From Dyella sp. ASV24 (GTDB lineage: Bacteria > Pseudomonadota > Gammaproteobacteria > Xanthomonadales > Rhodanobacteraceae): a DNA stretch of 64,000 nt. The notes beneath the pieces were generated by a model. That model was not told where the DNA came from. It did not search any database and was given only the letters and a program-made list of their open reading frames with translations. This document shows positions 23,047 to 49,675 of this stretch, one piece after another (position 1 is the first letter of the stretch; the number at the start of each line of letters is the position of its first letter). Made by a program: the position numbers and the translations under genes. The stretch is from NCBI RefSeq assembly GCF_016428905.1, contig NZ_JAELTQ010000003.1, positions 30,147 through 94,146 on the forward strand, given 5' to 3'.

Positions 23047-23255
23047 CTTGGAAGGATCTCCGTCGTTGCCGTTGGGCGAGCTGCTCCGGCGCATCCACGG
23101 CAGGTCGGCGATCTAGCCTCCAGCGTTTTACGCTCGTCAGGCGTGAGTGCCGCGAAGGGGCTCAGCGGTTGCGTTGTCTCGCTGAAATATTTGGATGTCC
23201 ATTCGTATCGGCGTGTGCTATCACATGGCCGCCTGACATCATCGATATGTGCCAT
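23040..23255 (-). CDS. Possible 71-residue peptide upstream of the radical SAM gene
   Basis: A small frame whose stop overlaps the radical SAM start by a few bases. The middle reads SPFAALTPDERKTLEAR, which looks protein-like, and the end carries three Cys residues (TCRGC and a final RC). It could be a peptide substrate for the radical SAM enzyme. Against this, its only ATG lies back to back with the putative start of the HPr-kinase-like gene, no ribosome site is visible, and third-position GC is below that of its neighbours. Treat as a candidate only. Confidence 0.2.
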   Translation of the reverse strand: MAHIDDVRRPCDSTRRYEWTSKYFSETTQPLSPFAALTPDERKTLEARSPTCRGCAGAARPTATTEILPRC

Positions 23256-24267: not shown

Positions 24268-24415
24268 TCGCCATTCACCCGCGCTGCGAGCAACCCTTTT
24301 CCTTCCGGGCCGCACTCATCGACAGGAGCGGTTGAATCGGGTGGGGTCTTGCATAGTCATCAGGTGCCAACTGAACCGCGGCAGGCGCGGTCGCGCAACG
24401 ACATGGAGGTCTGAC

Positions 24416-26149
24416 ATGCCCGTCGCATGGCAGGGTCTGTTGCGTGAGCGGGTGAATGGTCTGCCGCGGTCCTTTTTTGAGACGTTGCGGCCTCTGGGGC
24501 TATGGCGTATCGCAGCCTACGTGGCATTGTCGATCGGTAGCGCATTGACCGGTGGCATCGCGGCCTTGCTGGTAGCGCCAATGATCCAGCCTGGTTCCGT
24601 GGACTGGCTGGGTGGCCGATGGCAAGTACCTGGTGCCAGCATGGAGCTGCGCGCACTGCTCTTTGTGGCGGCGTCGGCGGTGTTTGCGTTGGTGCGTTGG
24701 CGCGCTGCCCGATTGGCAGCGTGGCTTGCCAGCAACTACGGCATGCAACTACGTGGCCGTGTGCATGAAAGCCTGATCGAGGCGCCTCTCTCCTCGCTGG
24801 CAGACGCCACTTCCGCGGAACTCGCCAACGTGCTGACGCACAATGTCGAGATCGTGACGCAGGGCTTCAATGCCCTGATGCAATTGTTAGTGGCTGGAAT
24901 CACGACCCTGGTCAGCCTGGGGTTTGCGCTCTGGGTATCGCCTCCACTCGTGCTGGCAGTGCCGGTGCTGGTGACATGTTCGTTGGTTGCCGCGCGTTTC
25001 AGCAGCCGCGAACACGCTGCGGTGAGTCGGCGCTACGTAACCGACATGACGCGGCTGTTCTGGATGAGCGAGGACTTTCCGCGCCGCTGGCGGCATATCA
25101 AGTCGTTCGGACAAGAACAGGCAGAGAAGGCGCACCATGCGGCCGCGTCAGGGCAATTGGGCGAGGGTTACCGCCGTCAGCTGGAATTGATCGCGTCCGG
25201 ACGCTTGGTGATTGAAGTACTCGCGGCCGTCGGCGTCGCAGGGATCTTCGTGGTGGCGCATCGATGGCACGGCATCGATCAGGCGTCACTGGTTGCTGTG
25301 TGCCTGTTGCTGGGGCGTTTGCTTCCTTATCTCGTTTCCACCCGCCAAAGCGTTCATCAGCTTGCATCCGCCATACCGGCTTTCGCGTTGTGGTGCAGGT
25401 ATGCGAGCACGCCACCTTCAGCGTCCACTCACGCGATGGAAGCTCAAGCCACCGAGCCCCTGCATATTGAGTCGTTGTCTATCGCGGATCCCATGACGCT
25501 TTGCGTGAAAGATCTGTGGCTCTATCCGGGCGAACTGGTTTTGATCCGTGGCGAGTCCGGCATCGGCAAGACCAGCCTGGCGGACGTGCTTGCGGGCATG
25601 AATCGTCCCGCGGCGTTTACGGCATGGCTGGGCGCACGCCGCATGGACTTTGACCACTATCGCGCATGGGTGCGCAGCGGCGCTTACATCAGCCAGAGCG
25701 TGCGGCCATGGCAGCGGACGGTGCGCGACTGCCTGCGTTGGGCGGCGACGGACGCCAGCGAAGAAGCCATGCATGCGGCGCTTGTTGACGTGGGCCTGGA
25801 CAAGCGCCTTGCATCGTCGGGAGGTGGACTCGACGCCACGCTGGATGGTTCCTCGGGTCGGTTATCAGGCGGGGAGATCCAGCGGCTGCTATTGGCGCAG
25901 GTATTATTGCGGCGCCCAACCCTGGCCATTCTCGATGAGGCGACCAGCGCACTTGATGCGGGAGCCGAGGCGCGGGTGCTGACGACCCTCAGGCAACGAT
26001 TGCCGGATACGATCCTGATCGTGATCTCCCATCGCGTCGGCGTTGCCAGCCTGGCGGATCGGAGCCTGACGATAAGCGCGGATCTCGTCGTGACCATCAA
26101 TGAGTCGATCGAGCGCTACAACACCCGTGCAGACGCAGCCTTGCACTAA
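24416..26149 (+). CDS. ABC exporter with fused membrane and ATPase domains
   Basis: A 577-residue half-transporter: a membrane domain of about six helices (residues 25-320) and an ATPase domain with Walker A GESGIGKTS (about residue 380), signature LSGGEIQRLLLAQ and Walker B LAILDEATSALD. The start at 24416 has GGAGG 6 bases upstream. No C39 peptidase domain is present. With the HPr-kinase-like gene it may export a modified peptide, lipid or glycan. The ATPase part is divergent (IGKTSLADVL) but complete. Its stop overlaps the convergent flavin reductase-like gene by 4 bases. Confidence 0.85.
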   Translation: MPVAWQGLLRERVNGLPRSFFETLRPLGLWRIAAYVALSIGSALTGGIAALLVAPMIQPGSVDWLGGRWQVPGASMELRALLFVAASAVFALVRWRAARLAAWLASNYGMQLRGRVHESLIEAPLSSLADATSAELANVLTHNVEIVTQGFNALMQLLVAGITTLVSLGFALWVSPPLVLAVPVLVTCSLVAARFSSREHAAVSRRYVTDMTRLFWMSEDFPRRWRHIKSFGQEQAEKAHHAAASGQLGEGYRRQLELIASGRLVIEVLAAVGVAGIFVVAHRWHGIDQASLVAVCLLLGRLLPYLVSTRQSVHQLASAIPAFALWCRYASTPPSASTHAMEAQATEPLHIESLSIADPMTLCVKDLWLYPGELVLIRGESGIGKTSLADVLAGMNRPAAFTAWLGARRMDFDHYRAWVRSGAYISQSVRPWQRTVRDCLRWAATDASEEAMHAALVDVGLDKRLASSGGGLDATLDGSSGRLSGGEIQRLLLAQVLLRRPTLAILDEATSALDAGAEARVLTTLRQRLPDTILIVISHRVGVASLADRSLTISADLVVTINESIERYNTRADAALH

Positions 26150-27072
26150 GCCTCAGCGAACGGCATGCCCAGGCGGCGACGATAGGTCTGATAGTAGCCC
26201 GGCGTGTGATGGAGCTGCTCGCCGTGCGCGAGCGATTCGTCAGAGAGGATTCGGCAGAGGAAAAACGTATGAGAGCCGATTTCCTGGCTGTGCAGCAAGG
26301 TCAACTCATGCACACACAGCGCTGAAGCCACCGCTGGAATGCTCAGCTCCCGTGAAGGACAAACAGGAAATGGCAGGGCGTCCCAGTCCTTCAGCGGCAC
26401 TTTGTGGTGCTCACTGAGTTTGTAAGCCATGGGCTTCATGGTTGCGGGAATACAGGATAGGGCAACACGGCCCGTTTCACGCATGACTTGGGCGGAAACG
26501 TTGGTGCTCCGTAACGCGAGCGAGTACAGCCCGCTCCGCGACAATGGCCCGATCAGGTCCATCGGAAACATGTTCCGGTGATAGGGGGTGTCCACAGAGA
26601 CGAGCACGACCGGTCTGGGACACAAGTACGCAACCATCAGCTGTTGAACTGCAATGGGGGCCATCAACGCGTGATGCGAGGAAGGTTGCCGTTGCATGAG
26701 CCGGTTCTGCAGCCATCGGTTCCAGGCACTTCTCGGCCAGCCGAGGCAATGGTGCTCGCCTGCCGTGACGCGATACAGCGTGGGTGAGGCCTGCTCGCCG
26801 ATGCCTAGTGAAACCATCCGTGTCAGTCGCAGGTCGCCCACCCGCTTGCCGGTGACACTATCGCAATACTCGATGACCGGCCGTTGGCCTGCGTCGATAC
26901 TGGTGGCGATGACCAGCGGCTTGAGCGACGCCACGGTGTGGTCCGTGGTGACATCGGTCACGCCGTCATCTCCGTGCAGATACGCAGCAACTGCGTGTTG
27001 GGGAGCGGCAACGGCCACCGTCGACCATTGCGGCAGCGGGCGTATCAGCGGACGTATCCAATCCTTCCACAT
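26146..27072 (-). CDS. Flavin reductase-like (FMN-binding split-barrel) protein
   Basis: A protein of about 308 residues. Residues 140-290 resemble the flavin reductase/FMN-binding domain (RPVVLVSVDTPYHRNMFPMD, ETGRVALSCIPATM, HELTLLHSQEIGSHTFFLCRIL). The first 130 residues are an extra domain I do not recognise. It is the last gene of the NRPS-linked minus-strand group, 1 base after the methyltransferase. It might supply reduced flavin or act directly on a product; no flavin monooxygenase or halogenase partner is present in the window. Confidence 0.65.
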   Translation of the reverse strand: MWKDWIRPLIRPLPQWSTVAVAAPQHAVAAYLHGDDGVTDVTTDHTVASLKPLVIATSIDAGQRPVIEYCDSVTGKRVGDLRLTRMVSLGIGEQASPTLYRVTAGEHHCLGWPRSAWNRWLQNRLMQRQPSSHHALMAPIAVQQLMVAYLCPRPVVLVSVDTPYHRNMFPMDLIGPLSRSGLYSLALRSTNVSAQVMRETGRVALSCIPATMKPMAYKLSEHHKVPLKDWDALPFPVCPSRELSIPAVASALCVHELTLLHSQEIGSHTFFLCRILSDESLAHGEQLHHTPGYYQTYRRRLGMPFAEA

Positions 27073-27073
27073 G

Positions 27074-27703
27074 TCAGATGCGCCGAAACAACAGGAACAT
27101 GTAGAGCTGTGTCGCCATGCCGAAGCCGCCGGGCTCGATCCGCTCCAGGCGGAAATGGGGCGCAGCTGATCGTGCCACCACGCGCGGCGCAAAACGATGG
27201 ATGCGGCTTTCGCTTGGGATGGCGTAATGGCCGCGGCGCAGTAGATGGAAGATGTTGGCCAGCCACCAGCCGTAGCGCGCATCGCCCAGGTAATAAGGGT
27301 TGAGCATGCTCGTCAGCACAAAACCGCCCTTGCGGACCGTGTGCGACAGCTCGTCGAAGAGCCGGGTGTGATCCGCGAAATGGTTGAATACGGCGAAATT
27401 CGCCGTTACTGCGAACACCCTGCATGCGTCGGTGGCATCGATGTCGACGATGGTCTGCCGATCGAGTTCTTCGCGGCAATACATCAAAAGATGATCTCGC
27501 ATGGCGGACGAAGGTTCATAGACAAACGTGCGATGCCCGTGAGCCGCGTAGGTCCTGGCGTCAATGCCCGTACCTGCACCAAAGTCGAGTATGTCTGCGC
27601 CGTGCGGCAGCAGCTCCATCACCATTCGCTGAAAGCGGCTACGTACAGCCACGTCCCGGCGGGAGGTCAAGAAAAACTGGTGGTACTGCTCACCCGTATG
27701 CAT
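27074..27703 (-). CDS. Class I SAM-dependent methyltransferase
   Basis: A 209-residue methyltransferase with motif I ADILDFGAGTGIDARTYAAHG (about residue 35) then FVYEPSSAMRDHL. The ATG at 27703 is favoured by AAGAAGG about 11 bases upstream; a GTG 12 bases earlier is an alternative. In the NRPS group it is a candidate for N-, O- or C-methylation of the peptide or a precursor. Confidence 0.78.
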   Translation of the reverse strand: MHTGEQYHQFFLTSRRDVAVRSRFQRMVMELLPHGADILDFGAGTGIDARTYAAHGHRTFVYEPSSAMRDHLLMYCREELDRQTIVDIDATDACRVFAVTANFAVFNHFADHTRLFDELSHTVRKGGFVLTSMLNPYYLGDARYGWWLANIFHLLRRGHYAIPSESRIHRFAPRVVARSAAPHFRLERIEPGGFGMATQLYMFLLFRRI

Positions 27704-27786
27704 GCCGCCAGCCACCTTCTTGACGATTGCTGTCTCAACTCGCGCCAGCCAAGAAGCGCAGGAGTGGCCATCAGGCCCTTCCTGTC

Positions 27787-27866: not shown

Positions 27867-29021
27867 TCAGGACAATGACAACGCTTGTGCTTGGCATAGG
27901 GTCATGAGATCGATCGGTGAAAGCTCGATCTCCACTCTTGGAACGCCAGCGCCGGTAAGCACGGTGGTATGAGCGAGTAGCGTTTCGTCGATGAATGCCG
28001 GAATGTCCGGCACCGCAATGGGGGTCACCGATGTGGGCGGGTAACCCACCCGATCCTGCAGATCGGACAGGGGTGCCATTTCCAGTCGCCCGGCATCCAG
28101 TTTCTTTGCAAGGCTGGAGAGATCTACCCGCTTGTCCATGCCGCACACGACCAGGTAATGGCGTGCGTCGACGCGGCTCTTGAGGAATAGCGTCTTGGTG
28201 ATGCGTGAAAGGTCATAGCCGAGGGCATCGGCGAAGTCGTTCGGTGTCCGGATCGGTCGCTCGAAATCGTCATGCCGGTGCACTTTGTAGGCGGTTTTCG
28301 CCGCACTCAATGCATCGATGATGCGAGGCGCCGCCTGTGGATGATCTTCGGACGTGATGGTCATGCCAAACCGCTGGGCGGCCTCCTCGAAATGCGAGCG
28401 AAAGCGTTCCGGTACCGCATTGCCATAGATCTTTACGTACTCGCGGAACAGGTGTGCGTTGTCTTTGAGGAACAGGATGTCGGTCGGCACCATATGGCGA
28501 ATGACCAGCATCGGTACCGGACTGTATAGCGGACGGAACTCCGGATTCCATAGGCCGCGCTTGTCCGGTGGCCCGGCGTGAAACTCGCCGACCATCAGGC
28601 CGTTTGGCACGAAGTGCCGTTGCAGGTCCGCCTGCGCCGCTTCGATCACTCCCGCGACATCGTCTTCGGCGAGGTAGGGAAACAGCACCATGAGCGACTT
28701 GAACTGCGCCTCATTGCCCGATACGGGTTCAAGTTCGATGAAGCGCTCCATCTCGCGTAGAAGAATGGCCTTGATGGCGTCAATGTCCAGGTCATCGTCC
28801 TCATAGACGGTCGCGAACATCAGCTTCTTCATCAAGGCGCCAGGCACAAAGGGGCACATGGGGCCATTGCGGCCGAGCTCCGGATGCGGCGCGCACAGAT
28901 AGTCCCTTGCCCAGCGGGCAATGGTCGCGGCGGCAGGATGCCCTGCGGAGGCGGCCATGTGCACGGGAAGCAACGGAGGCGCGGCACGATCAAGGGTCCT
29001 TTCGGTCAACGTCTGGGCCAT
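27867..29021 (-). CDS. Two-domain protein: DUF6875-like plus YbaK/EbsC aminoacyl-tRNA deacylase-like
   Basis: A 384-residue protein. The N-terminal part (about residues 30-230, with GRNGPMCPFVPGAL and MLVIRHMVPTDILFL) resembles DUF6875. The C-terminal part (about residues 235-384, with AYKVHRHDDFER, ITKTLFLKSRVDARHYLVVCG and RVGYPPTSVTPIAV) resembles the YbaK/ProX editing domain, which hydrolyses misacylated tRNA. In an NRPS locus it could edit aminoacyl species or handle an unusual amino acid. The fusion itself is uncommon. Confidence 0.65.
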   Translation of the reverse strand: MAQTLTERTLDRAAPPLLPVHMAASAGHPAAATIARWARDYLCAPHPELGRNGPMCPFVPGALMKKLMFATVYEDDDLDIDAIKAILLREMERFIELEPVSGNEAQFKSLMVLFPYLAEDDVAGVIEAAQADLQRHFVPNGLMVGEFHAGPPDKRGLWNPEFRPLYSPVPMLVIRHMVPTDILFLKDNAHLFREYVKIYGNAVPERFRSHFEEAAQRFGMTITSEDHPQAAPRIIDALSAAKTAYKVHRHDDFERPIRTPNDFADALGYDLSRITKTLFLKSRVDARHYLVVCGMDKRVDLSSLAKKLDAGRLEMAPLSDLQDRVGYPPTSVTPIAVPDIPAFIDETLLAHTTVLTGAGVPRVEIELSPIDLMTLCQAQALSLS

Positions 29022-30010: not shown

Positions 30011-30042
30011 GATGGCCGTGCCCTGCGGGCAGGGCGGTCATC
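30011..30042. promoter_or_regulatory. Hairpin at the end of the SnoaL-like gene
   Basis: GCCCTG (30020-30025) pairs with CAGGGC (30030-30035) around CGGG. The stem extends imperfectly outward to GATG...CATC (30011-30042) and touches the stop codon of the SnoaL-like gene on the minus strand. No U-tract follows, so it may be a weak attenuator or an mRNA 3' end element. Confidence 0.35.
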
Positions 30043-30400
30043 AGATGGCGGCGCGAAAGAAATACGTGGTGCGTTTCTTGATGACGCCGTTCTCGAGTTC
30101 ATAGGCGTCCGCAAAACGTTCAGCGAGCGTCTCGCCGGTTTTGGAACGGCCATGGAAATGGCCCCAGCAGATCGCCTTGCCACCGTCGCGGAGGCCACCG
30201 TCGAGCGAATGCTTGCCCTCGGCGATGATTCGAGTCGAGCTGTAGAAGGTGAGCAGCGCGTCGATGCCTTCGATGGGCGGATAGCCCGGGCGTTCGTACA
30301 CCACGTTTGCATGGAAGAACTGAGGCAGGTCGTTCCAGGTGGCGGTGTCGATGGTGCGGAAAAGGTCTTCGAACCAGCTGCGCGGTGGTTGCGTGCTCAT
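30041..30400 (-). CDS. SnoaL/NTF2-like small protein
   Basis: A 119-residue protein of the cone-shaped alpha+beta barrel (NTF2/SnoaL) type: an N-terminal helix ([20 protein letters not shown]) followed by strands containing [19 protein letters not shown] and [18 protein letters not shown]. The fold serves cyclases, isomerases, hydrolases and binding proteins. Its start overlaps the MbtH gene (ATGA), placing it in the NRPS operon as a possible tailoring enzyme. Confidence 0.7.
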
Positions 30401-30684: not shown

Positions 30685-32556
30685 TCAAGCCGGCGACAGC
30701 GTCTGGCTTTCGATCAGCTTGAGTGTGTGTACACGGGTGAAAAGCTCTTCAAGTGTTTCCACTTCAAACAATGTGGCGAGCGGGATATCGACGCCATGCT
30801 TCTCGCTGACGGTGGCGCAGAAGCGCATGGCGCTCAGCGAATCGCCACCGATATCGAAGAAGTTGTCGCCCGGCTGGATCTGCGGCTGGCCAAGCAACTG
30901 ACGCATGCAGTCGAGTAGTGACTGGGTCAGTGCATCTGTTTCCTTCGCCAGGGGCACGCCATCGGCCGCGGATTTCTTGGCTGGGTCATTGACAAGTTCG
31001 GCCAACGCCCGGCGATCGACCTTGCCATTGATGGTCAGGGGCAGTGCGTCGAGGAATGCGATGGTTCGCGGAACCATGTAGTCCGGCAGTGCTTCTCGAA
31101 GATGCTGTAGCAACGTGGGTGCATCCACATGATCGCTATCGCTGCGTCGCACCGCGAATGCGTGGAGCTCGGAAGCACCAGTAGATGGTTTGGCATGGAT
31201 GACACAAACGTCTGCCAGAGAATCCGTTGCGCGCAACAGGGTTTCGATTTCACCAAGCTCCACGCGAAAGCCGCGGATCTTCACCTGTGTGTCGATGCGA
31301 CCGAGATAGTCCAGTCGACCATCGACCGCCTGGCGCACCAGGTCGCCAGTGCGATACATGCGCGAACCATCCGTGGCGAACGGGTCGGGTAGAAAGCGCT
31401 CCGCCGTCAGTGCGGGGTTGCCGAGATATCCCTGTGCCAGCCCAGTACCTGCGATGAAGAGCTCGCCTTCGGCGCCAAGCGGCGCGGCCAGTCCGTTCTT
31501 GTCGAGCACATAGGCGGCCGTGCCAGGGATTGGCGTTCCAATCGGGATCGCCGTATCGCTGGGTACGTCGGACGTCATGACGTGGCAATGCGAGAACGTT
31601 GTGACCTCGGTTGGACCATAGCCATTGACCAGCGCGCAACCGCCTGACTGGACGAACTGACTGGCAGCGGCAGGTGACATCACATCGCCACCGGCAAGGA
31701 GTACGCGGACGCTGGGCAAGCGTGACAGGGCTTCCCCGCCCAGTGCATTGAAGACGCCTGTGCTCAGCAGCAGCACGGTGACACGGTGGGCTTCGACCAA
31801 TGCACTGATCTCCTTGCCCGAGATGCGCGGCGGCGCCACGACCAGCGTCGCACCGGTAAGCAAGGCGCCCCAGATTTCGAACGTGGAGCCATCGAAAGCG
31901 ATGGACATGCCGTGATAGACGACGTCGTCCGGCATGAAGCTGCAATAGTTTGCTCCGGTCACCAGGTCAAGAATGGCCCGATGTGGAATACATACGCCTT
32001 TGGCCTCGTTGGTGGAACCTGAGGTGTAGATGACGTAGGCCAGTTCGAGTGGATGGAGATCGAGCGTGGGCAAGGGCTGCGTATGTTCGACGGACGCGAC
32101 ATCGACGGTGAGTCGCTTGCCGGTGAACCAGTCCGGCGCTGGTGCTCCCTTGGCGATGGCGAGAACCTTGATGCCCGCCGCTACCGCTTGCGCCGCCAGA
32201 CGCTGTCCGGGCGCGGCTGGATCGAAAGGCACATACACAGCACCGATTTTCAGGATGGCGAGCATCGCCACGATCGCCTCGGCCGACCGGTCCATGTACA
32301 GGCCCACGCAATCGCCGCGCTCCGCGCCTTGGTCGAGCAGGGTGCGCGCGGCGGCGTCGGACAGCCGGTCAAGCGCGCTGTAGCTGAAGCGTGCCTCGCC
32401 GTGGATGATCGCCGTCTTCTCCGGCAAGGCGCGCACGACGTGTGCGAACGCGACGGGCAGGGAAGGCGATGGCGGAAATGGCGCATGGGTATTGCGTGCG
32501 ACGCTCCTGCCTGAAGCGGCGGTGGGCATCGTGCCTGCAAGCATTCGGTCGACCAT
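30685..32556 (-). CDS. Stand-alone NRPS adenylation-thiolation protein
   Basis: A 623-residue A-T didomain without a condensation domain, so a likely loading module. A-domain core motifs include YVIYTSGSTNEAKGV (about residue 185), NGYGPTE and the TGD segment. The carrier domain has DNFFDIGGDSLSAM, whose Ser carries phosphopantetheine. Aligned by eye to GrsA, the ten specificity positions read D-G-F-L-L-G-G-T-F-K, closest to Val- or Ile-type codes, so an aliphatic residue is likely. The start at 32556 has GGAG upstream. It should hand its residue to the C domain of the protein at 38865-42125. Confidence 0.88.
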   Translation of the reverse strand: MVDRMLAGTMPTAASGRSVARNTHAPFPPSPSLPVAFAHVVRALPEKTAIIHGEARFSYSALDRLSDAAARTLLDQGAERGDCVGLYMDRSAEAIVAMLAILKIGAVYVPFDPAAPGQRLAAQAVAAGIKVLAIAKGAPAPDWFTGKRLTVDVASVEHTQPLPTLDLHPLELAYVIYTSGSTNEAKGVCIPHRAILDLVTGANYCSFMPDDVVYHGMSIAFDGSTFEIWGALLTGATLVVAPPRISGKEISALVEAHRVTVLLLSTGVFNALGGEALSRLPSVRVLLAGGDVMSPAAASQFVQSGGCALVNGYGPTEVTTFSHCHVMTSDVPSDTAIPIGTPIPGTAAYVLDKNGLAAPLGAEGELFIAGTGLAQGYLGNPALTAERFLPDPFATDGSRMYRTGDLVRQAVDGRLDYLGRIDTQVKIRGFRVELGEIETLLRATDSLADVCVIHAKPSTGASELHAFAVRRSDSDHVDAPTLLQHLREALPDYMVPRTIAFLDALPLTINGKVDRRALAELVNDPAKKSAADGVPLAKETDALTQSLLDCMRQLLGQPQIQPGDNFFDIGGDSLSAMRFCATVSEKHGVDIPLATLFEVETLEELFTRVHTLKLIESQTLSPA

Positions 32557-32650
32557 CCTTCTTCTCCAAGCCTTGCCCTGCATGGGCTCGCATCGGCGGG
32601 CCCGGTTTCTGGCATCGCATCCGTGCCACCTGTTGGCGCACGAACACCCC

Positions 32651-33376
32651 TCACACGATGTGTCGGCGCACGTCAGTACAGGCCAGGTCCTCCACCAGAG
32701 CGTCCGCCAATGTGGTCACGTGCTGGTGCATGAACATATGCCCGCCGTTGAATGCGCGACTTCGGAACGACGCACGGGTTTCCCTGCGCCACGACGCGAA
32801 GGCGTCGCCCACGCTGTCGTCCTGGCGGCCGTGGTAGGCGTACACCGGGACGTCCAACGGAGCGCTCTGTGGTTCGTGGGTTTCAAACAGCTTCAGATCC
32901 GCGCGCATGGATGGCGCGGAGAGCGTGATCAGTTCGGGCGAGGCAAGCAGTTCGTCCGGAACGCCGCCCAGATCGCGCAGTGCTTCGAACATGGCGCGAT
33001 CGTCCATGCGGTGCAGCAGTTGCGGATGCTCGATGGACGTCGGTCCACGCAGTGCGCAGACCACCAAAGCGATGGGCGGTAGTGCGGATGAATCGCCATC
33101 TGTCGCCAGGCGTTGCATCACGTTCAGCGCCACCAGCGCGCCGAAGCTATACCCGAGGAAGGCATAGGGTTCGCGCAACTGTGGGCGTAGTTCGGTGGCA
33201 AGGGCGGTCTCAAGTTCCGGCCACGTGTCGATACAGCGTTCGCCACGTCGCCTGCCACGACCCGGGAGATCCATCGCCACCATCTCCATGCGGCCTCGCA
33301 ACTGGCCGGCCAACGGCCTGAAGTTCCATGAGCTGCCGCCGGCGTAAGGGAAGCAGAAGAGCTTGGGCAGACTCAT
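32651..33376 (-). CDS. Type II thioesterase (NRPS editing)
   Basis: A 241-residue alpha/beta hydrolase of the GrsT/RifR type. It has LFCFPYAGGSS at the N-terminus, nucleophile elbow GYSFGA (Ser about residue 95), an acid in YAYHGRQDDSV and His in GGHMF. Such enzymes free mis-primed carrier domains. It overlaps the end of the large NRPS gene by 4 bases (ATGA). Confidence 0.9.
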   Translation of the reverse strand: MSLPKLFCFPYAGGSSWNFRPLAGQLRGRMEMVAMDLPGRGRRRGERCIDTWPELETALATELRPQLREPYAFLGYSFGALVALNVMQRLATDGDSSALPPIALVVCALRGPTSIEHPQLLHRMDDRAMFEALRDLGGVPDELLASPELITLSAPSMRADLKLFETHEPQSAPLDVPVYAYHGRQDDSVGDAFASWRRETRASFRSRAFNGGHMFMHQHVTTLADALVEDLACTDVRRHIV

Positions 33377-36300
33377 GGGAGTGATGCCTCGGCGGTCCGC
33401 GATGGTTTCATGTCGGGCGGCGCTCGACGGAAGAGCGCGTCGTCGGCCTGCTGCTGGATAACGTCCTTGTCCAGGATCACCGAGTCGGGAATGGCGTCAG
33501 GCAGGGTTTCCTCCAGGCGCCGCAGTGGCGGATAGAGCAAGCCCAACACGGTGAGCGCAATGGAAAGCAGCCCGACGATCATGATCATGACCGCCGTACC
33601 GCGCGCTGCGCCTTGGCCTACCCAGTGCTGGACGAACGAAGCCATCTGCGCATCGGCGAGCATCGGCTGGAAGATCCTGTCGACCAGCCAGCCGGCGAGC
33701 AGCGTGCCCAGCGGCATCAACGAGCGGGCCAGCATCTGGTTGGCGGCGATCACCCGCCCTTGCAGTTCCAGCCCCACCTTGACCTGTACCAGCGACAGCC
33801 AGTGCGCATTGATGAAGGCGGTGCACACGCCAATGCCGAACATGCCGGCCATTGGATAGATCGCGACAGGACTGACCGCCATGATCATGGCTGACACGCC
33901 GAACAAGGCGACGAACCCGACCATGCCGACCACCCGGCGTCGCAAGCCGCCCCAAAGACTCATTGCAAGGCTGCCCACCAGCATGCCTGCGCCGTTCATG
34001 GCCATTACCGTGCCCAGGGTGGCCGTCGTGGAGAACGCCATCACTAGTGGCGTCACCAGCACCAGCACCATGCTCGCGAGGCAATTGCCCAGCGCGAAGA
34101 ACACCGCGAGCGCAATCATGCCGTGGCGCTTCAGGATGTAACGCCAGCCATGCGTCACTTCCTTCCAGAACGGCTCTTCCAGCCGGCGGAACAACGCGTA
34201 CGGAAAGCGCACGGCGACCAGCGTGGCAAAGGCGATGACGTAGCTGGCGATGTCCAGTACCAGGATGTGATCCAGTCCCAGCCGCAGCATCAGCACACCG
34301 CCGAACATTTGCCCGATCAGCAGACCCGACGCGCCGCCCAGTTGTACGAAGCCGTTGGCATGGCCGAGGTAACGTTTGGGAGCAAGCTGCGCGATGGCTG
34401 CGGTATAGGCGGGTTGCCGGAACGCGCTGGCGATGGCGCTCAACGTTGCGACGACGTAGAGCGTGCTGACGTGCAGTCGCCCACTCCAGGCAAGCGTGGC
34501 GGTGACCACCACGACCAGTACGCAGAAGAGGTCGCAAGCCATCATGATCTTGCGTCGGTCCCATCGATCGGCTGCCGCGCCAGCGATGGGCAATACAAGG
34601 ATGCCTGGCAGAATGCCAAGCGCCGACATCATCGCGAAATCGGAGACGACGCCTGTCTGCTGATACACCCAGACGCCCAGTGCAAACGTGGAAAGCCCCG
34701 TGCCGATCACTGAGATGAGCTGGCCCAGCGAGACGAGCAGGAAGGTGGCGAGCGTCGCTGTCGGTGCGCGCGCCGCTTGCTGCGGAGGTGGCACATGCGC
34801 CGTTGGCTCGACACGTTCAGTGACGCCACGTTGCCAGCGCCTTGCCTGCTGAGTACCAAGTTCGGCGAGCTCGCGCGCCTGGTGCTTCTGAAAGAAGTGC
34901 CCTGCGCCCGGGATGATCTCCAGCGATACGTCACGGCTGAATCGCTGCCACTCCAGGTATTCCTCGCCATGGAACTCCGTGGCGCGGTCGCGCTCGCCCA
35001 CCACGCACACGAGCGGGGCATGGAGCATGGGGGCATCGGCGGCGCGGTAGTGGCGTGTATAGAAATCCTCCGCCTGCCGTCCGTCGTGGCGCATGTTGCG
35101 TACAAGGAACTCCAGTTCCTTGGGGTCTTCGTCACCCGCCGCGCCACCGGTGACCAGCAATCCATCGAGGATGGAACGGGTGGAAACCAGGCCGTCGGTA
35201 GGAAGCACCCGACTGATGGCGTCGAAAACGGTGCCGGGAAGGCGCGGGATAGGGAAAGAGCCGCCCACCACCACGCCAAGCACATTCTGTGCGCCACGCG
35301 CCTCCAGCTGCTGCGCAATGGCGACGGCCATGCCTGCGCCGAGGCAATGGCCGTAAAGCAGCACGGGCCCGCGTACGATGCGCTCGATCTCATCCGCGCA
35401 TCGGGCGGCCACCGTGTCGAATGGCTGCAAGGGATCATCCGGACGCGCGTAATCGTGTCCGGGAAGCTCCACGGCATACAGCGCATCGCTTTCCGGCAGG
35501 CAGGTCGACAATGCGAGATAGGAAATGGCGCTGCCACCGCCGAACGGTACGCAGACCCAGGTGATGCCGTTCGGCTGTGCCCCGTGTGGCGTGAGCCGGT
35601 GCAGCAAGCCTTCGTGGCTGGATGCCGTGCGGGAGAGATGGTCGGCCAGCAGCTCCACGGTGGGCTGACGGAATAGATCCATCACGCTCAGGCCGCGGCC
35701 GATGCCGCGAACGGCACGGACCGCCTTGAAGGAATCGCCGCCAAGGTCGAAGAAGTTTTCGTCGATGCCGAAGCTATCGAAGCCGAGCAGCGAGGACCAT
35801 ACCGTTGCGATTTCGGCTTCGAGCGCGTTGCGCGGGAGTCGCACATCAGCGTCTGCGGGACGCTCCTGGCTGGGCACCGGCAGGGCAAAGCGGTCGAGTT
35901 TGCCATTCGCGTTGAGCGGCAGGCGCGCGATGGGTACGAAAGCCGTGGGCACCATGTAGTCAGGCAGCGCCGCGCGCAACGCGAGGCGTAGTGCCTCGAT
36001 GACCTCTCGATCGTGATCGCGCTCGGTGTCTTCGCTCATGACCAGGTACGCCACCAGGCGTTTGTCGCCCGGTGTGTCTTCGCGCAGGATCACGCGCGCT
36101 TCCTTCACTGCGTCGTGTGTCAGTAGCGATTCGATCTCGGCTGTTTCGACGCGATAGCCGCGGATCTTGACCTGATGATCGATACGCCCCAGGAATTCCA
36201 CAGTGCCATCGGCGCGCACGCGCGCGAGGTCGCCGGTGCGATAAAGCCGGCCGCCGGGCTCGCCAAACGGATCGGGAACAAAGCGCTCAGCTGTAAGCCC

Positions 36301-38868
36301 GGGACGAGCCAGATAGCCGCGCGTGATGCCGGCGCCACCGATATGCAGCTCGCCCGGAATACCCGTTGCCACCAACTGCAGGTTGGCGTCCAGCACATAA
36401 GTCCGCACGTTGCCGAGTGGTCGCCCCAGTGGCAGCGTTCCCCCCAAGTCTGGCAGCTCCGCGGGAACGGTGTACGTAAGGGCGGCCACACTGCTTTCGG
36501 TGGGTCCGTAATGATTCTGTATGACGAGCCCCGGCCTCGCGGCGCGCACCTCGGCCACGGTCTGCCAGCCACAGGCCTCACCCGCAAAAATCAGGCAACG
36601 CTGTGGCAGCAGATCCTCGATGGGGGCCATGGAGCACAACGTTTCGAAGTGACTGGGGACCAGCTTCAGTACGTCAGGGCGATGTCTGCGCATGTAGTCG
36701 GCAAACGCCATCGGCTCGGTGACGCGCGCATGCGACATGACGTGTACGCAGCCGCCACTGGTCAGCGCGCCGTACAACATGGTGGTGCCCAGGTCGGCGG
36801 CGAACGTGGAAACCATGGCGAAATGGCTGCCCCGCGGCACATCGAGCCGACGCATCACGCCGTGCAAGTAGTTCAGATAGTGACGGTGCTCGACGCCCAC
36901 ACCTTTGGGGCGACCGGTCGAGCCGGAGGTAAAGAGCACATACATCAGGTTGTTGCCGCCATGTACTACTGGTACGGCAGTGGCGGGCTGGGCTGCGATC
37001 AGTGACTCGTCGCGGTCTATGCAGATCGCGCGAATACCTGGCCCCGCGTCGAGCGGGGCGACCAGATGCGATTCGGTAAGGCACAGCGTTGCGCCGGCAT
37101 CCTCAAGCATGAAGCGCACGCGGTCGACAGGGTAGGTGGCATCGATGGGCACATAGGCAGCGCCGGCCTTGAGAATGCCGAGCAGGGCGGCGACCGTCTT
37201 GTGCGTGCGCTCCATGTACAGGCCCACGCGTTGGTCAGCGCCTGCGCCATGGGATCGGAGGCAGGCTGCCATGCGGTTGGACCACGCATCAAGCTCCCGA
37301 TAACTCAGGCACGCGTCCTCATGCATTACGGCAGGCGCATCTGGAGTCTCCGCGACATGGGTGCCAAACAGCTCGACGATGTCGCGTGCCGACGGGTACT
37401 CGGTCGCGGTGTGGTTGAACGTTGCCAGCAGGGCCTGGCGCTCGTCATCATCGATCCAGTCCAGCAACGCGAGCGGCGCATCCGGCCGGCGCAGCATGTC
37501 CTGCAGGAGGTTGCCCAGGTGGCGAATCATCCGCGCCACGGTGTCGCGATGGTAGAGGTCCGTGTTGTACGTCACCGCACCGCTCAGCCCATCGTCGAGG
37601 TCGTCGATGGCCCAGCTCAGGTCGAACTTGGCGGTACCGGTGTCGATCGGCATATCGCGCGCCACGATGCCTTCCAGGTCCAGTGCGACGCGAGGCACGT
37701 TGTTGATGGACAGCATCACTTGAAACACGGGCGTATGCCCGAACTGTCGCTCAGGCGCGATGGCCTCCACCAGCTTGTCGAATGGCAGGGCCTGATGATC
37801 GACCACAGCCATCCATTCTTCCTTCACCTGCTGAAACAATGCGCGCGCCGTAACTGCCCGGCCAGGGCGCACGCGCATGGCCAGCGTGTTGACGAAGCAG
37901 CCGATCAGGCCTTCCCATTCGGGAACATCGCGACCCGCCACCGGCGTGCCGATGACCAGATCGCCTTGTCCGCTGTAGCGCTGGTATAGCGCGCCAAGCG
38001 CTGCGAGGAAGATGACGAAGGGCGTGACGCGTTCCTGCAGGGCGAATGCCCTCAGTGCTTTCTGCGTGCCGTCCAGGCGAAACGATTCGATGGCGCCGGA
38101 TGTGCCTTGAATGGCCGGGCGAGGGCGGTCAGCAGGCAGCTCCAGCAGCGCAGGTGCGCCCGCCAGCCGCTGTTGCCAGATGCCAAGCTGACGATCGAGC
38201 ACTTCGCCGCGTAGCTGTTGTGCTTGCCAGTGCGCAAAGTCCGCGTACTGCAACGGGAGCTCCGATATCGGCTCCGCTTCTCCGCGCCGTGCCGCGTTAT
38301 AAGACAGGCCGAGTTCGCGCAGCAGCACGCCGACCGACCAGCCGTCGGCGGCAATGTGATGCAGGTTGATCAACAGAAGGCTTTCATTTTCACCCGAACG
38401 CCACAGGGTCGCCCGCAACGGTGGTTCGTGTTCCAGCGCAAAGGGTGTGCTGGCTTCGGTGGTTGCGAGTGAAAGCAGCTGATCGAGTGATTCGTCGGCA
38501 TGCCCGTCAATCACGCGGAGGCTGATCTCATGCTCTGAACGGACGATGGCTACGGGCACACCGCGATCATCGCGATAGCTGGTGCGCAGTATCTCGTGCC
38601 GCCGTGCCACATCGCGCAGGGCGCACTCGAGTCGCGTGGCATCGACCTGACCTTGCAGCGCAAGTGCGATGGGGATGTTGTACGCGGCGCTTCCGGGATG
38701 CCATTGGTCAAGGAACCACAGGCGTCTCTGGATGAAAGACAGTGGCGTGCCAGCTTCAGACGGTCGTGGCGTAATCCTAGGCGCTTCCTGGTGGGTGGCC
38801 TGTGCCTTGCGAAGGCGCCGCTCCAGCAGGCGGCGACGGGCATCCATGTCCGACCCGAGTGTGCTCAT
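33373..38868 (-). CDS. NRPS module C-A-T-TE fused to an MFS exporter
   Basis: An 1831-residue protein. C domain: about residues 40-470, active site HHIAADG at 170-176. A domain: about 490-1000, with YVLFTSGSTGRPKG and NHYGPTE. T domain: FFDLGGDS near 1045. Type I thioesterase: about 1100-1340, nucleophile elbow GHCLG (Cys about 1175), Asp in GERD (about 1294), His in GAGHFF (about 1324). A 12-helix MFS domain (about 1372-1790, ADRWDRRK loop) ends the chain. By-eye specificity code D-L-T-K-I-A-H-V-A-K resembles Asp codes. Cys replacing the usual Ser in the TE and the fused exporter are both unusual. It is translationally coupled (ATGA) to genes on both sides. Confidence 0.9.
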   Translation of the reverse strand: MSTLGSDMDARRRLLERRLRKAQATHQEAPRITPRPSEAGTPLSFIQRRLWFLDQWHPGSAAYNIPIALALQGQVDATRLECALRDVARRHEILRTSYRDDRGVPVAIVRSEHEISLRVIDGHADESLDQLLSLATTEASTPFALEHEPPLRATLWRSGENESLLLINLHHIAADGWSVGVLLRELGLSYNAARRGEAEPISELPLQYADFAHWQAQQLRGEVLDRQLGIWQQRLAGAPALLELPADRPRPAIQGTSGAIESFRLDGTQKALRAFALQERVTPFVIFLAALGALYQRYSGQGDLVIGTPVAGRDVPEWEGLIGCFVNTLAMRVRPGRAVTARALFQQVKEEWMAVVDHQALPFDKLVEAIAPERQFGHTPVFQVMLSINNVPRVALDLEGIVARDMPIDTGTAKFDLSWAIDDLDDGLSGAVTYNTDLYHRDTVARMIRHLGNLLQDMLRRPDAPLALLDWIDDDERQALLATFNHTATEYPSARDIVELFGTHVAETPDAPAVMHEDACLSYRELDAWSNRMAACLRSHGAGADQRVGLYMERTHKTVAALLGILKAGAAYVPIDATYPVDRVRFMLEDAGATLCLTESHLVAPLDAGPGIRAICIDRDESLIAAQPATAVPVVHGGNNLMYVLFTSGSTGRPKGVGVEHRHYLNYLHGVMRRLDVPRGSHFAMVSTFAADLGTTMLYGALTSGGCVHVMSHARVTEPMAFADYMRRHRPDVLKLVPSHFETLCSMAPIEDLLPQRCLIFAGEACGWQTVAEVRAARPGLVIQNHYGPTESSVAALTYTVPAELPDLGGTLPLGRPLGNVRTYVLDANLQLVATGIPGELHIGGAGITRGYLARPGLTAERFVPDPFGEPGGRLYRTGDLARVRADGTVEFLGRIDHQVKIRGYRVETAEIESLLTHDAVKEARVILREDTPGDKRLVAYLVMSEDTERDHDREVIEALRLALRAALPDYMVPTAFVPIARLPLNANGKLDRFALPVPSQERPADADVRLPRNALEAEIATVWSSLLGFDSFGIDENFFDLGGDSFKAVRAVRGIGRGLSVMDLFRQPTVELLADHLSRTASSHEGLLHRLTPHGAQPNGITWVCVPFGGGSAISYLALSTCLPESDALYAVELPGHDYARPDDPLQPFDTVAARCADEIERIVRGPVLLYGHCLGAGMAVAIAQQLEARGAQNVLGVVVGGSFPIPRLPGTVFDAISRVLPTDGLVSTRSILDGLLVTGGAAGDEDPKELEFLVRNMRHDGRQAEDFYTRHYRAADAPMLHAPLVCVVGERDRATEFHGEEYLEWQRFSRDVSLEIIPGAGHFFQKHQARELAELGTQQARRWQRGVTERVEPTAHVPPPQQAARAPTATLATFLLVSLGQLISVIGTGLSTFALGVWVYQQTGVVSDFAMMSALGILPGILVLPIAGAAADRWDRRKIMMACDLFCVLVVVVTATLAWSGRLHVSTLYVVATLSAIASAFRQPAYTAAIAQLAPKRYLGHANGFVQLGGASGLLIGQMFGGVLMLRLGLDHILVLDIASYVIAFATLVAVRFPYALFRRLEEPFWKEVTHGWRYILKRHGMIALAVFFALGNCLASMVLVLVTPLVMAFSTTATLGTVMAMNGAGMLVGSLAMSLWGGLRRRVVGMVGFVALFGVSAMIMAVSPVAIYPMAGMFGIGVCTAFINAHWLSLVQVKVGLELQGRVIAANQMLARSLMPLGTLLAGWLVDRIFQPMLADAQMASFVQHWVGQGAARGTAVMIMIVGLLSIALTVLGLLYPPLRRLEETLPDAIPDSVILDKDVIQQQADDALFRRAPPDMKPSRTAEASLP

Positions 38869-41800
38869 GCTGCACTTCCTTTGCGTGCCGACAGGTCCGC
38901 CAGTGAGTCGCTCTCGTCCCGGGCCAGTGCGCGTGCGACATCGACGTCATCCATGGCTTCGATCTGCTCCATCAGTGCTTCCTCGATGCGCAGCGCAAGT
39001 GCGGCAATCGTTGGTGACTCGAACAGCAGCCTTAAAGACAGCGGGAGTTCCAGCCGCTCGCTGGCACGCGCCATGACCTGCGCGGCAAGAATCGACTGTC
39101 CGCCGAGTGCGAAGAAATCGTCCTCCACGCTGACCTCAGGCAGTCCCAGCACTTCGCTGATGATGGAAGCAAGAATCTCTTCTGTCAGTGTGCGCGGCGC
39201 TACGTACGCGTGTCTGGCGCGGTATCCCAGCGCTTCCGGCGAAGGCAGGGCGCGCCGGTCGATCTTGCCGTTGGGCGTGCGAGGAAATACGTCCAGTGGA
39301 ACGATCGCCGCAGGAATCATGTGCTCAGGCAGGCGTGCGCGCAGGTGGGCAGTCAGTGCATGACCATCGGCTTCCATGCCGGGAAACGGAACCACATAGG
39401 CCACCAGCTGCTTGCCACCGACCCCCAGCGACTGCGCCGTGACGACCGTGTCCTCTACCTGCGGATGCTGACGCAGCACGGCCTCGATCTCGCCTAGCTC
39501 GATGCGAAACCCGCGGATTTTGACCTGGTCGTCGACGCGTTCGACGAAGGCAATGGAGCCATCCGGCAAATAGCGCGCGTGGTCGCCGGTGCGATACAGC
39601 CGTGCACCTGTCGATACGGCTGGGTCGTTCGCAACGAATGGATCGGGAACGAACCGTTCGGCAGTGAGGCCGGGGCGGCCGAGATAACCCCGCGCCAACC
39701 CAGCGCCGCCGATGTAGAGCTCCCCGGTAACGCCTGGTGGCACCGGTTCCATGTTCGCATCCAGCACGTAGACGCGGGCATGTGGAATCGGTCGCCCAAT
39801 AGGTGGCGGCCCGCCGTTGGGAATACAACGCGCCATGGTCGTGCAGATGGTTGCCTCGGTCGGTCCGTAGGCATTGATAAAACGGCGACCCTCCGCCCAG
39901 CGATCCACGAGTTCGGCAGAACAGGCCTCTCCGCCCGCAATGACGGACTTCAGTGCAGGAAGATCGTCCGCCGGTACCGTAGCAAGCACCGATGCAGGCA
40001 GGACGATAACGCTCACCTCGTGCTCGCGAAGCAATCGCGCCAACGGCTCACCACCAATGACATCCGCCGGACGAAGCAGCAGGCGGGCGCCGGCAGACAG
40101 GGTCATGCACACATCTGACACCGAGACATCGAAGCCAAATGACACGAATTGCAGGACGCAACTGTGCGCATAGACGCCGAAGCCTTCGATCTTCGCCTTG
40201 ACCAAATTGAAGAGCGCGCCGTGAGAGACCTCTACGCCTTTCGGTTTTCCGGTGGAACCGGAGGTGTAGATGATGTACGCGAGGTCACCAGGCGCAGGGC
40301 CGCCTTCCGGCGCTGCTTCCGGTTGGCGAGCTAGCGCCGCGCTGTCGCCATCCCAATCCCATAGGGTCGGGGGGCGGTTTAAAGTTTGCCGTTCAAGCAG
40401 TGTATCGGCGCGCTCCCGGATGCCTTGGCCGGTGATCAGCAGCCTGGGATGCGCATCGTCGACCATGAAGGCGATGCGCTCGTCAGGATAGGCCGGGTCG
40501 AGCGGCAGATAGACACCGCCCGCCTTGAAGATGGCGAGCATGGTGCAGACGAGTTCCGGACTGCGTTCCAGCCATACGCCGACAGGAACCTCGGGGCGTA
40601 CACCTTGTTGACGTAGCACATGCGCCAACTGGTTGGCGCGACGTTCAAGCTCGCCATAGGTCCATGCGGTATGGCCTGCGATCAGCGCTACCGCGTCAGG
40701 GTTGTTTCGCGCGTGCGTCTCAAACAGCGTGTGCGCCATACCTTTGGGCGGCTCGCCTCCGGTGGCATTCCATGTGCGGATGGCGCGCCTGCGCTCGGTA
40801 ACGTCGAACAGCGGGAGCTCATCCGTCGAGGTATCCGGGTTGGCGATCGCCTCCGACAGCAGCACATTGAAGTGCGTGAGCATGCGCTGCGCTGTCGATG
40901 CGTCGAACAGGTCGCTGTTGTATTCCAGCGAAAGCGTGGCTCCACTTTCGAGTGGATCAAGCACTAGCGCTAGATCGAAGCGTGCGCGGTCGGTGGGTAC
41001 CTCTCCCGTGTAGCTCATCCGCAATGAAGGCGATAGCTGGGCGGATGGTCGGACGGTCTGCACCACGAGCATCGCCTGGAACACCGGCGAATGGGCAAGT
41101 TCCCGCTGCGCGCCCAGTGTGCCGACCAATTCACCAAAGGGGAATTCGCCGTGCGAATAGGCTTTGAGACAAGTGTTGCGCACTTGTTGAAGGAACTGGC
41201 GAAACGGCATGCGGCTTCCCACTCGCATGCGCATAGCCACGGTATTGACGAAGAAGCCGATCAGGTTGCGCGTATCCTTGTCGGAGCGCAGCGCAAACGG
41301 GCTGCCAATCACTACCTCCTGTTGACCCGCATATCGGCACAGCCAGATGGCAAGCGCGGCCAGCAGGTACATATAGGGCGTGACGCGCTCGCGGCGGCTG
41401 GCCTGCTCCAGTTCCTCCACCCATGTGCCGGTCACGGGTATGGATAGCGTCGCGCCGCGGTACGTCTGCACAGACGGGCGGGGTCGATCTGCGGGAAGCG
41501 CAAGTACCGGGAGCTCACCCTCCAGCTCTTTGGTCCAGAAATCCGCCAGACGCTGACGATGTTCACCACTGATGCGTCGGCGCTCGGTGCTGGCGGCCTC
41601 ATGGCTTTGCAGGGGTAGGGCGGGCAACGATGCCGGCTCACCGGCCAGTAGGGCCGGATAGATGAACTCAAGTTCTCTCAGGAAAATATCGATCGATGCG
41701 CCATCGAAAATGATGTGATGAACGGTAAGTACAAACTGATGCGTACTCTCGTTGAATCGATACAGCACACCGCGCAATAGTGGCGGGCGGGCGAGATCGA

Positions 41801-42125
41801 ATGGTTGATTGAGGATGGTGCGCTGATGCTGCTGCGCCAACTTATCGGCGTTCTCGTGGCCACGCAGATCTTCGACGGCTAACGTGAATGCCTCGGGTGG
41901 CGCATCGATAAGAACGGCTTCGCCGTGTCGATCCGAGAAACCGGTGCGAAGCACGTCGTGACGACGAAGGACTTCGGCGATGGACTGTTCAAGTACCGCG
42001 ATGTCCACCGCGCCGTGCAGGTTGAAGATCATCGAGGCGTTGTAAAGCGCCTTGTCTTCTGCGATTCGATCAATGATCCAGAGACGTTCTTGGGCAAACG
42101 ACAGGCTGGGAATCGCGGAAGTCAT
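38865..42125 (-). CDS. NRPS module C-A-T
   Basis: A 1086-residue protein. C domain: about residues 8-430, active site HHIIFDG at 136-142. A domain: about 470-970, with YIIYTSGSTGKPKG near 618-631, NAYGPTE and RTGD. T domain: DDFFALGGQS near 1002-1011. By-eye specificity positions read D-V-S-V-I-G-A-I-C-K; I cannot match this to one amino acid, though the last part resembles Phe-type codes. No epimerisation or methylation domain is seen. It is the first gene of the leftward operon and overlaps the next NRPS by ATGA. Its ribosome site is weak. Confidence 0.9.
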   Translation of the reverse strand: MTSAIPSLSFAQERLWIIDRIAEDKALYNASMIFNLHGAVDIAVLEQSIAEVLRRHDVLRTGFSDRHGEAVLIDAPPEAFTLAVEDLRGHENADKLAQQHQRTILNQPFDLARPPLLRGVLYRFNESTHQFVLTVHHIIFDGASIDIFLRELEFIYPALLAGEPASLPALPLQSHEAASTERRRISGEHRQRLADFWTKELEGELPVLALPADRPRPSVQTYRGATLSIPVTGTWVEELEQASRRERVTPYMYLLAALAIWLCRYAGQQEVVIGSPFALRSDKDTRNLIGFFVNTVAMRMRVGSRMPFRQFLQQVRNTCLKAYSHGEFPFGELVGTLGAQRELAHSPVFQAMLVVQTVRPSAQLSPSLRMSYTGEVPTDRARFDLALVLDPLESGATLSLEYNSDLFDASTAQRMLTHFNVLLSEAIANPDTSTDELPLFDVTERRRAIRTWNATGGEPPKGMAHTLFETHARNNPDAVALIAGHTAWTYGELERRANQLAHVLRQQGVRPEVPVGVWLERSPELVCTMLAIFKAGGVYLPLDPAYPDERIAFMVDDAHPRLLITGQGIRERADTLLERQTLNRPPTLWDWDGDSAALARQPEAAPEGGPAPGDLAYIIYTSGSTGKPKGVEVSHGALFNLVKAKIEGFGVYAHSCVLQFVSFGFDVSVSDVCMTLSAGARLLLRPADVIGGEPLARLLREHEVSVIVLPASVLATVPADDLPALKSVIAGGEACSAELVDRWAEGRRFINAYGPTEATICTTMARCIPNGGPPPIGRPIPHARVYVLDANMEPVPPGVTGELYIGGAGLARGYLGRPGLTAERFVPDPFVANDPAVSTGARLYRTGDHARYLPDGSIAFVERVDDQVKIRGFRIELGEIEAVLRQHPQVEDTVVTAQSLGVGGKQLVAYVVPFPGMEADGHALTAHLRARLPEHMIPAAIVPLDVFPRTPNGKIDRRALPSPEALGYRARHAYVAPRTLTEEILASIISEVLGLPEVSVEDDFFALGGQSILAAQVMARASERLELPLSLRLLFESPTIAALALRIEEALMEQIEAMDDVDVARALARDESDSLADLSARKGSAA

Positions 42126-43983: not shown

Positions 43984-44097
43984 GTTGATGGCCCCTGGGG
44001 ACATCCTCGCTGGGAGCTACGGCAGATCGAAGGCGACAGCTACGGCGTTGCCGCAGGATCAGGCCGATGGAACATGAAACAGTACAGGGGCGATTCC

Positions 44098-46759: not shown

Positions 46760-46765
46760 TCGCCC

Positions 46766-48259: not shown

Positions 48260-48277
48260 GCTTTGCACCGTCCCGAC

Positions 48278-49663: not shown

Positions 49664-49675
49664 GGTAACCGCGCC

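What the first reader, a model, noticed from the sequence alone, without database searches (positions are those of the whole stretch)
33373..38868. NRPS thioesterase with cysteine in place of serine
The type I TE elbow reads GHCLG (Cys about residue 1175), with Asp and His of the triad retained. Cys-type TE domains are known from ObiF (obafluorin) and SulM (sulfazecin), where they support strained-ring formation. By inference, the terminal Asp-like residue here could be released by an unusual cyclisation rather than hydrolysis.
Basis: partly seen in the sequence, partly recalled or inferred. Interest (0 to 1): 0.72.

Follow-up and report, generated by a model that had tools for sequence, protein, structure and literature searches.

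The report
Cysteine release domain fused to exporter
The terminal enzyme of a peptide assembly line in this bacterium ends in a release domain that carries a cysteine where a serine is usual, is closest among solved structures to the release domain that makes the antibiotic obafluorin, and is joined in one chain to a membrane transporter domain; it likely frees a short peptide by an unusual, untested reaction and would pass it to that pump.

Summary

Strained-ring release is only partly supported. Terminal A-domain codes in the family are Asp-like (133/207) but also Gly-like (16), Ser (14) and others, with Cys in all but two. So this active site does not imply a beta-lactone. No TauD hydroxylase was found in the genome, no sulfotransferase in the operon. 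The operon, shared with Dyella and partly Corallococcus, predicts aliphatic-Trp-like-Asp-like plus a DUF6875 (Trp-oxidising family) protein. I favour non-hydrolytic release by a nucleophile other than the terminal beta-position, then export; plain hydrolysis is a serious rival. The product is untested.

The parts
33373..38868 (-). NRPS C-A-T-TE-MFS, 1831 aa, terminal module
34864..35556 (-). thioesterase domain (residues 1105-1335), ObiF1/SulM-like
35344..35346 (-). Cys1175 codon (TGC), nucleophile
34987..34989 (-). Asp1294, position II acid
34897..34899 (-). His1324, catalytic histidine
33715..34731 (-). MFS transporter domain (residues 1380-1718) fused behind the TE
35899..37362 (-). terminal adenylation domain, code DLTKIAHVA (Asp-like by recalled codes)
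38865..42125 (-). NRPS C-A-T, 1086 aa, code DVSVIGAIC (aromatic, Trp-like by recalled codes); overlaps the next gene by 4 nt
32651..33376 (-). stand-alone type II thioesterase, Ser (GYSFG), 241 aa; overlaps the NRPS gene by 4 nt
30685..32583 (-). A-T didomain, 632 aa, code DGFLLGGTF (aliphatic by recalled codes); likely the loading unit, as the Corallococcus relative has two A, one C and two T domains in one chain
30041..30400 (-). SnoaL_2 protein, 119 aa
29091..29966 (-). class IV aminotransferase, NF009896 branched-chain type (342 bits, cut-off 262)
27867..29021 (-). DUF6875 (heme Trp-oxidising family by PMC13307353) fused to tRNA_edit (YbaK-like) domain
27074..27715 (-). SAM methyltransferase, 213 aa (no tblastn match in the Dyella and Corallococcus loci held)
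26146..27282 (-). flavin-reductase-like protein; true start likely further in

Best explanation
The terminal synthetase of this operon carries a cysteine thioesterase whose nearest solved relative in sequence and predicted fold is ObiF1 and which is joined in one chain to an MFS-family transporter domain, and it likely takes a predicted three-residue peptide onto Cys1175 as a thioester, releases it by acyl transfer to a nucleophile other than water, and would hand it to the fused pump. Predicted order: aliphatic residue (A-T protein), Trp-like residue (C-A-T), Asp-like residue (terminal module). Predicted steps: His1324/Asp1294 deprotonate Cys1175; transthioesterification from the T domain; a lid of about 83 residues would shut out water; a nucleophile not on the beta-carbon of the last residue (for instance the peptide's N-terminal amine, or the indole or hydroxyl of the Trp-like residue) resolves the thioester. 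Shown: domains, triad residues, family conservation, nearest structures, operon content. Inferred: substrates, nucleophile, release mode, export.
For: Cys in 205/207 homologues, Asp position II and His in 207/207, Gly or Ala (never Asp) at position I in 207/207. The two Ser exceptions lie beside Cys rows in the tree (P0101 with P0102, P0194 with P0149), so they are likely separate late changes. ObiF1 first in each PDB comparison of the TE. AF2 model pLDDT 91.7, long last lid helix 155-181. Two Cys TEs with tested Ser variants: ObiF1 C1146S turns to hydrolysis; BulbE-TE Cys to Ser loses cyclisation and gains hydrolysis, and its authors note that thioesters are more activated than oxoesters for aminolysis but similar towards hydrolysis. 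So a lineage that keeps Cys almost without exception likely needs a thioester for something other than hydrolysis. Cys kept across terminal codes: Asp-like 132/133, DxGE 30/31, Gly-like 16/16, Ser 14/14, other 13/13. MFS-sized tail (400 residues or more) in 207/207, although one of the two searches used the TE alone. The first three operon genes overlap by 4 nt; the operon is shared with Dyella; DUF6875 lies downstream of the NRPS-TE-MFS gene in 4 of 4 close loci (window, L005, L006, L007).
Against: No product, assay or characterised family member. Terminal codes rest on recalled specificity tables with one control in the alignment (EntF reads DVWHFSLVD). No enzyme in the operon points to a given nucleophile. 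Conserved Cys could reflect lineage rather than need. Ser type I TEs are poorly sampled in the tree: one complete reference, EntF, on a very long branch. Foldseek ranks a type II TE (ClbQ) above SulM, and by sequence BorB scores above SulM. The second homologue search listed only the best 120 of 273, the first 120 of 130.
Confidence: 0.5

Rival explanations
1. Ordinary hydrolysis: the Cys TE would free a linear aliphatic-Trp-like-Asp-like tripeptide acid, which the fused MFS domain exports; Cys is a lineage habit without chemical meaning.
For: Terminal codes range over Asp-like, Gly-like, Ser and, by recalled codes, beta-Ala-like, Glu-like and Val-like, which fits a general hydrolase. Position-II acid and the fold are also those of hydrolytic type II TEs (RifR, RedJ, BorB). 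Wild-type BulbE-TE also hydrolyses part of its substrate.
Against: Cys in 205/207 with only two Ser rows; the two Cys TEs with tested Ser variants hydrolyse less than those variants; the TE sits with ObiF1/SulM and apart from the Ser references used.
Confidence: 0.33
2. One reading: ObiF-like beta-lactone (or SulM-like beta-lactam) formed from the beta-substituent of the terminal residue.
For: The two top structures by VIA-align are the two four-membered-ring-forming TEs; Gly at position I as ObiF1 Gly1173; relatives with a Ser code at the end (14/207) could do it directly.
Against: Terminal code here is Asp-like, so a beta-hydroxyl or beta-amine would have to be added: no TauD match in the genome, the three Asp_Arg_Hydrox matches lie on other contigs, no sulfotransferase among the scanned operon genes; of ten PF00685 matches in the genome the one on this contig is about 48 kb from the operon. 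SulM's Gln-Cys-Asn motif is absent (His-Cys-Leu). The same Cys TE goes with Gly-like codes in 16/207. Other hydroxylase families were not searched.
Confidence: 0.08
3. Asp-specific cyclisation: the beta-carboxylate or a neighbouring amide closes on the terminal carbonyl to give an anhydride or succinimide that then rearranges or reacts on.
For: The Asp-like code is the commonest in the family (133/207); two lid arginines (TE residues 115 and 137) are near-constant in the family (R 194/207; R or K 202/207) and absent from the aligned ObiF1, SulM, RifR and EntF columns, and could hold a carboxylate.
Against: Those counts run over all 207, so most members with other terminal codes keep the arginines too; lid alignment is unsure (SulM has a gap at one of the columns); no precedent in the papers read.
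Confidence: 0.09

Closest known systems
ObiF1 TE (obafluorin, 6n8e)
   Same: Cys after GH, His, acid after strand 7, Gly at the strand-6 position, His-Asp pair in the lid helix; best match (36-38% identity)
   Different: ObiF1 has an MbtH-like domain, not an MFS, behind its TE; its A domain loads a beta-hydroxy amino acid; here the code is Asp-like and the lid arginines differ
SulM TE (sulfazecin, 8w2c/8w2d)
   Same: Cys, position-II Asp, long lid helix; second by VIA-align Z (29.1, 2.1 A), third by Foldseek
   Different: No Gln-Cys-Asn motif here, no sulfotransferase found in the operon
BulbE-TE (bulbiferamides)
   Same: Cys TE doing a hard intramolecular acyl transfer; a Trp residue upstream
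   Different: BulbE acid is after strand 6 (position I) (PMC11536411, passages); not compared by sequence here
Type II TEs (RifR, RedJ, BorB)
   Same: fold and position-II acid
   Different: stand-alone, Ser nucleophile; this one is in cis at the end of the last module
NCBI-named 'non-ribosomal peptide synthetase/MFS transporter' proteins
   Same: same domain set; the window protein's own family
   Different: named by annotation only; no studied member seen in the listings

Membership tests
ObiF1/SulM-type Cys TE (structural class) | Cys nucleophile | tested here: met
   Cys1175; 205/207 in family
ObiF1/SulM-type Cys TE (structural class) | acid after strand 7 (position II), small residue at position I | tested here: met
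   Asp1294; Gly at the ObiF1 Gly1173 column; strands from the model
ObiF1/SulM-type Cys TE (structural class) | groups with them by sequence and fold | tested here: met
   tree; ObiF1 first; SulM second by VIA-align but third by Foldseek and by profile score
beta-lactone-forming TE (function of ObiF1) | beta-hydroxy terminal residue | tested here: inconclusive
   code Asp-like; no TauD in genome, other hydroxylases possible
beta-lactone-forming TE (function of ObiF1) | four-membered ring product | not testable with these tools
   no assay
SulM-type monobactam TE | Gln-Cys-Asn motif | tested here: not met
   His-Cys-Leu (criterion from PMC11298585 section 9)
SulM-type monobactam TE | sulfotransferase in the cluster | tested here: not met
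   none among scanned operon genes; ten PF00685 matches elsewhere in the genome
EntF-like Ser type I TE | Ser nucleophile and acid after strand 6 | tested here: not met
   Cys and Gly at those columns
BulbE-type Cys TE | Cys with acid after strand 6 | tested here: not met
   Gly there (BulbE)
NRPS TE-MFS fusion family | MFS domain directly behind the TE in one chain | tested here: met

The most novel reading that the evidence does not exclude
Cys-TE plus MFS is a distinct, widespread kind of assembly-line terminus, a release-and-export unit found in at least six phyla by source names, in which the thioester chemistry of the ObiF1/SulM class was freed from four-membered rings and now closes varied peptides on nucleophiles outside the last residue, with the product passed to a pump built into the same enzyme; here it makes a cyclised aliphatic-(hydroxy)Trp-Asp peptide.
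Probability: 0.3. Interest if true: 0.75.

Novelty: new variant of a known kind. Interest (0 to 1): 0.5.

Why it matters
Cys TEs invite the guess of a beta-lactone or beta-lactam. The 207 homologues gathered here have the ObiF1/SulM active-site plan, bar two with Ser, yet some carry terminal codes read as residues that cannot form such rings. That warns against the guess and offers a large untested set in which release chemistry can be read out. The built-in transporter makes a directly testable claim that release and export are coupled in one chain.

Tried and rejected
Rejected: chance or sequencing error at the Cys codon (205/207 conserved). Rejected: 'type I TE with the usual Asp' (that position is Gly). 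The first A-code table was off by one at two positions; corrected, with EntF as a Ser control. The position-I column was off by one; corrected. Two of 207 A-code rows were gapped or misaligned (P0168, P0201) and are counted under 'other'. A guess from memory that foroxymithine makers hold a member found no paper that names it among those listed. Led nowhere: literature searches for NRPS-TE-MFS fusions (0 papers; 6 papers, titles and abstract starts seen, none on this; 12 listed, among them the known Cys-TE papers); PMC8949500, a review of odd NRPSs, holds neither 'MFS' nor 'transporter' (find); Trp 7-hydroxylase papers (0). PDB search with the MFS part gave one match at E 0.54, taken as chance. 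The genome search: in the phylum 1 of 398 at E<=1e-100, the window's own genome; in the order 5 of 299 at E<=1e-60, the window's own included, three of them over the MFS part only. A first look at L007 missed the DUF6875 gene because a longer ORF on the other strand was taken; found. Not done: AU test of the tree, docking, more Ser type I references, a third protein search, BulbE-TE in the tree.
Full report
Observation. The ORF 33373-38868 on the minus strand encodes 1831 aa with Condensation, AMP-binding, PP-binding, Thioesterase and MFS domains in that order. The nucleophile elbow is YGHCLGAG with Cys1175; Asp1294 and His1324 complete the triad. It did not see the MFS domain, nor that the Asp is not the classical one.

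Active-site plan. In ObiF1 the triad is Cys1146, Asp1254, His1284, with Gly1173 where EntF-like TEs have their Asp (PMC6668435, passages). SulM has Cys2818, Asp2926, His2956, and its authors state that, of the NRPS TE domains compared, only ObiF1 and SulM put the acid after strand 7, 'position II' (PMC11298585, passages and section 9). By alignment the window TE has Asp at position II and Gly at the ObiF1 Gly1173 / EntF Asp column (in that column was taken one residue too early). A model made from 20 family TEs (pLDDT 91.7) shows the expected strands and, between strands 102-108 and 192-197, a lid with a 27-residue helix.

The family. Two searches, one with TE plus MFS (130 hits, best 120 listed) and one with the TE alone (273 hits, best 120 listed), gave 207 distinct proteins. 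All 207 have at least 400 residues behind the TE, and the Pfam columns of the two lists, as I read them, carry an MFS family in each row. Cys 205, Ser 2; position-II Asp 207; His 207; position I Gly 136 or Ala 71. Source names, where given, include Pseudomonadota, Myxococcota, Chloroflexota, Actinomycetota, Bacillota and a Spirochaetaceae genome (phyla assigned from memory). It is sporadic: 5 of 299 genomes of the window's order at E<=1e-60, the window's own included and three of them over the MFS part only; 1 of 398 in the phylum at E<=1e-100, again the window's own. A genome of the same genus (G267) has a four-module 4795-aa NRPS with the same TE-MFS end, and terminal code DVFYLGGVF.

Does Cys mean a four-membered ring? 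Nine specificity positions of the A domain in front of the TE were read from an alignment, with EntF as a control (DVWHFSLVD, the recalled Ser code). Counts over 207: Asp-like DxxK..[HNSTQA] 133, DxGE 31, Gly-like DxxQ....W 16, Ser DVWH 14, other 13, of which two rows were gapped or misaligned (P0168, P0201). Cys is kept in 132/133, 30/31, 16/16, 14/14 and 13/13. Names attached to codes are recalled, not tested. If the Gly-like reading is right, a beta-lactone cannot be the common product. For the window, DLTKIAHVA agrees with recalled Asp codes in five or six of nine places, depending on the variant, so a beta-hydroxyl would need adding: no TauD family match in the genome, three Asp_Arg_Hydrox matches on other contigs, no sulfotransferase among scanned operon genes while ten PF00685 matches lie elsewhere, one of them on this contig about 48 kb from the operon. 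Other hydroxylase families were not searched.

The operon. On the minus strand: C-A-T (38865-42125), C-A-T-TE-MFS, type II TE, A-T, SnoaL_2, branched-chain-type aminotransferase, DUF6875-tRNA_edit, methyltransferase, flavin-reductase-like; the first three overlap by 4 nt. Dyella sp. AtDHG13 has the same order through DUF6875-tRNA_edit (78-88% identity for the four small proteins matched), without matches to the methyltransferase or flavin-reductase-like protein. Two Corallococcus genomes have C-A-T-TE-MFS with DUF6875 directly behind; the protein before it, read in L007 only, holds two A, two T and one C domain. Codes: A-T DGFLLGGTF in window and Dyella (Corallococcus DALFLGCVF), middle DVSVIGAIC in all three loci read (window, L005, L007), last DLTK[IV]AHVA. 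So a tripeptide aliphatic-aromatic-Asp-like is predicted. DUF6875 proteins are reported as heme proteins that oxidise L-Trp, some at C-7 (PMC13307353, passages), which agrees with a Trp-like middle residue; that is an inference from family.

Mechanism. In the two Cys TEs whose Ser variants are described in the passages read, the Ser variant turns to hydrolysis (ObiF1; BulbE, PMC11536411). Near-total retention of Cys across differing terminal residues makes a non-hydrolytic release, with a nucleophile outside the last residue, the reading I commit to (0.5). The main rival is plain hydrolysis (0.33). The strict beta-lactone/lactam case gets 0.08. Coupling to the MFS domain is inferred from the fusion in all 207 proteins gathered.

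Novelty. PMC full-text searches for such fusions and for Cys TEs listed no paper whose title or abstract start concerns an NRPS with a TE-MFS end; one search listed 25 of 151. Of the papers, passages were seen in five (PMC6668435, PMC11298585, PMC13307353, PMC8949500, PMC11536411), with one whole section of PMC11298585; the rest were listings. Subscription papers and preprints are not in that library. NCBI already names such proteins 'non-ribosomal peptide synthetase/MFS transporter', so the fusion is known to annotation. I file it as a new variant of a known kind.

Noticed in passing
27867-29021 (-); L005:15713-16849: DUF6875 (Trp-oxidising heme family) is fused to a YbaK-like aminoacyl-tRNA editing domain in the window and in Dyella; the Corallococcus matches (L006, L007) stop before the editing part. 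The editing domain might clear tRNA charged with the oxidised amino acid (inference).
   Followed up: partly
L028, L029, L030 (G258, G288, G272): In three genomes of the same order an MFS homologue and a DUF6875 gene sit side by side; in L029 they follow an NRPS that ends in a NAD_binding_4 reductase domain instead of a TE, with a FAD_binding_3 oxygenase behind.
   Followed up: partly
L010:3489-8756: Vibrio tasmaniensis plasmid NRPS with a GHC position-II TE and no MFS; its only A domain found has the same nine-letter code as EntF (Ser).
   Followed up: partly
L011:5097-8714: Streptomyces sp. NBC_01351 plasmid NRPS with a GHC TE beside a PLP enzyme, argininosuccinate lyase and ATP-grasp genes.
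   Followed up: no
TE lid, window protein residues 1209 and 1231 (TE 115, 137): Two arginines near-constant in the TE-MFS family (R 194/207; R or K 202/207) but not in the aligned ObiF1, SulM, RifR or EntF columns.
   Followed up: partly
46256-63004 (+): Type VI secretion gene set (VipA, VipB, ImpE, TssF, TssG, ClpB-like AAA protein, VgrG-like, FHA protein).
   Followed up: no
20301-26149: NTP_transf_5, B12-binding radical SAM, weak Hpr_kinase_C and an ABC transporter next to a polysaccharide-type gene set (about 3-20 kb), with a second B12 radical SAM at 16544-18094.
   Followed up: no
43288-45945 (+): LuxR-type response regulator and hybrid histidine kinase divergently placed from the NRPS operon; possible regulators.
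   Followed up: no
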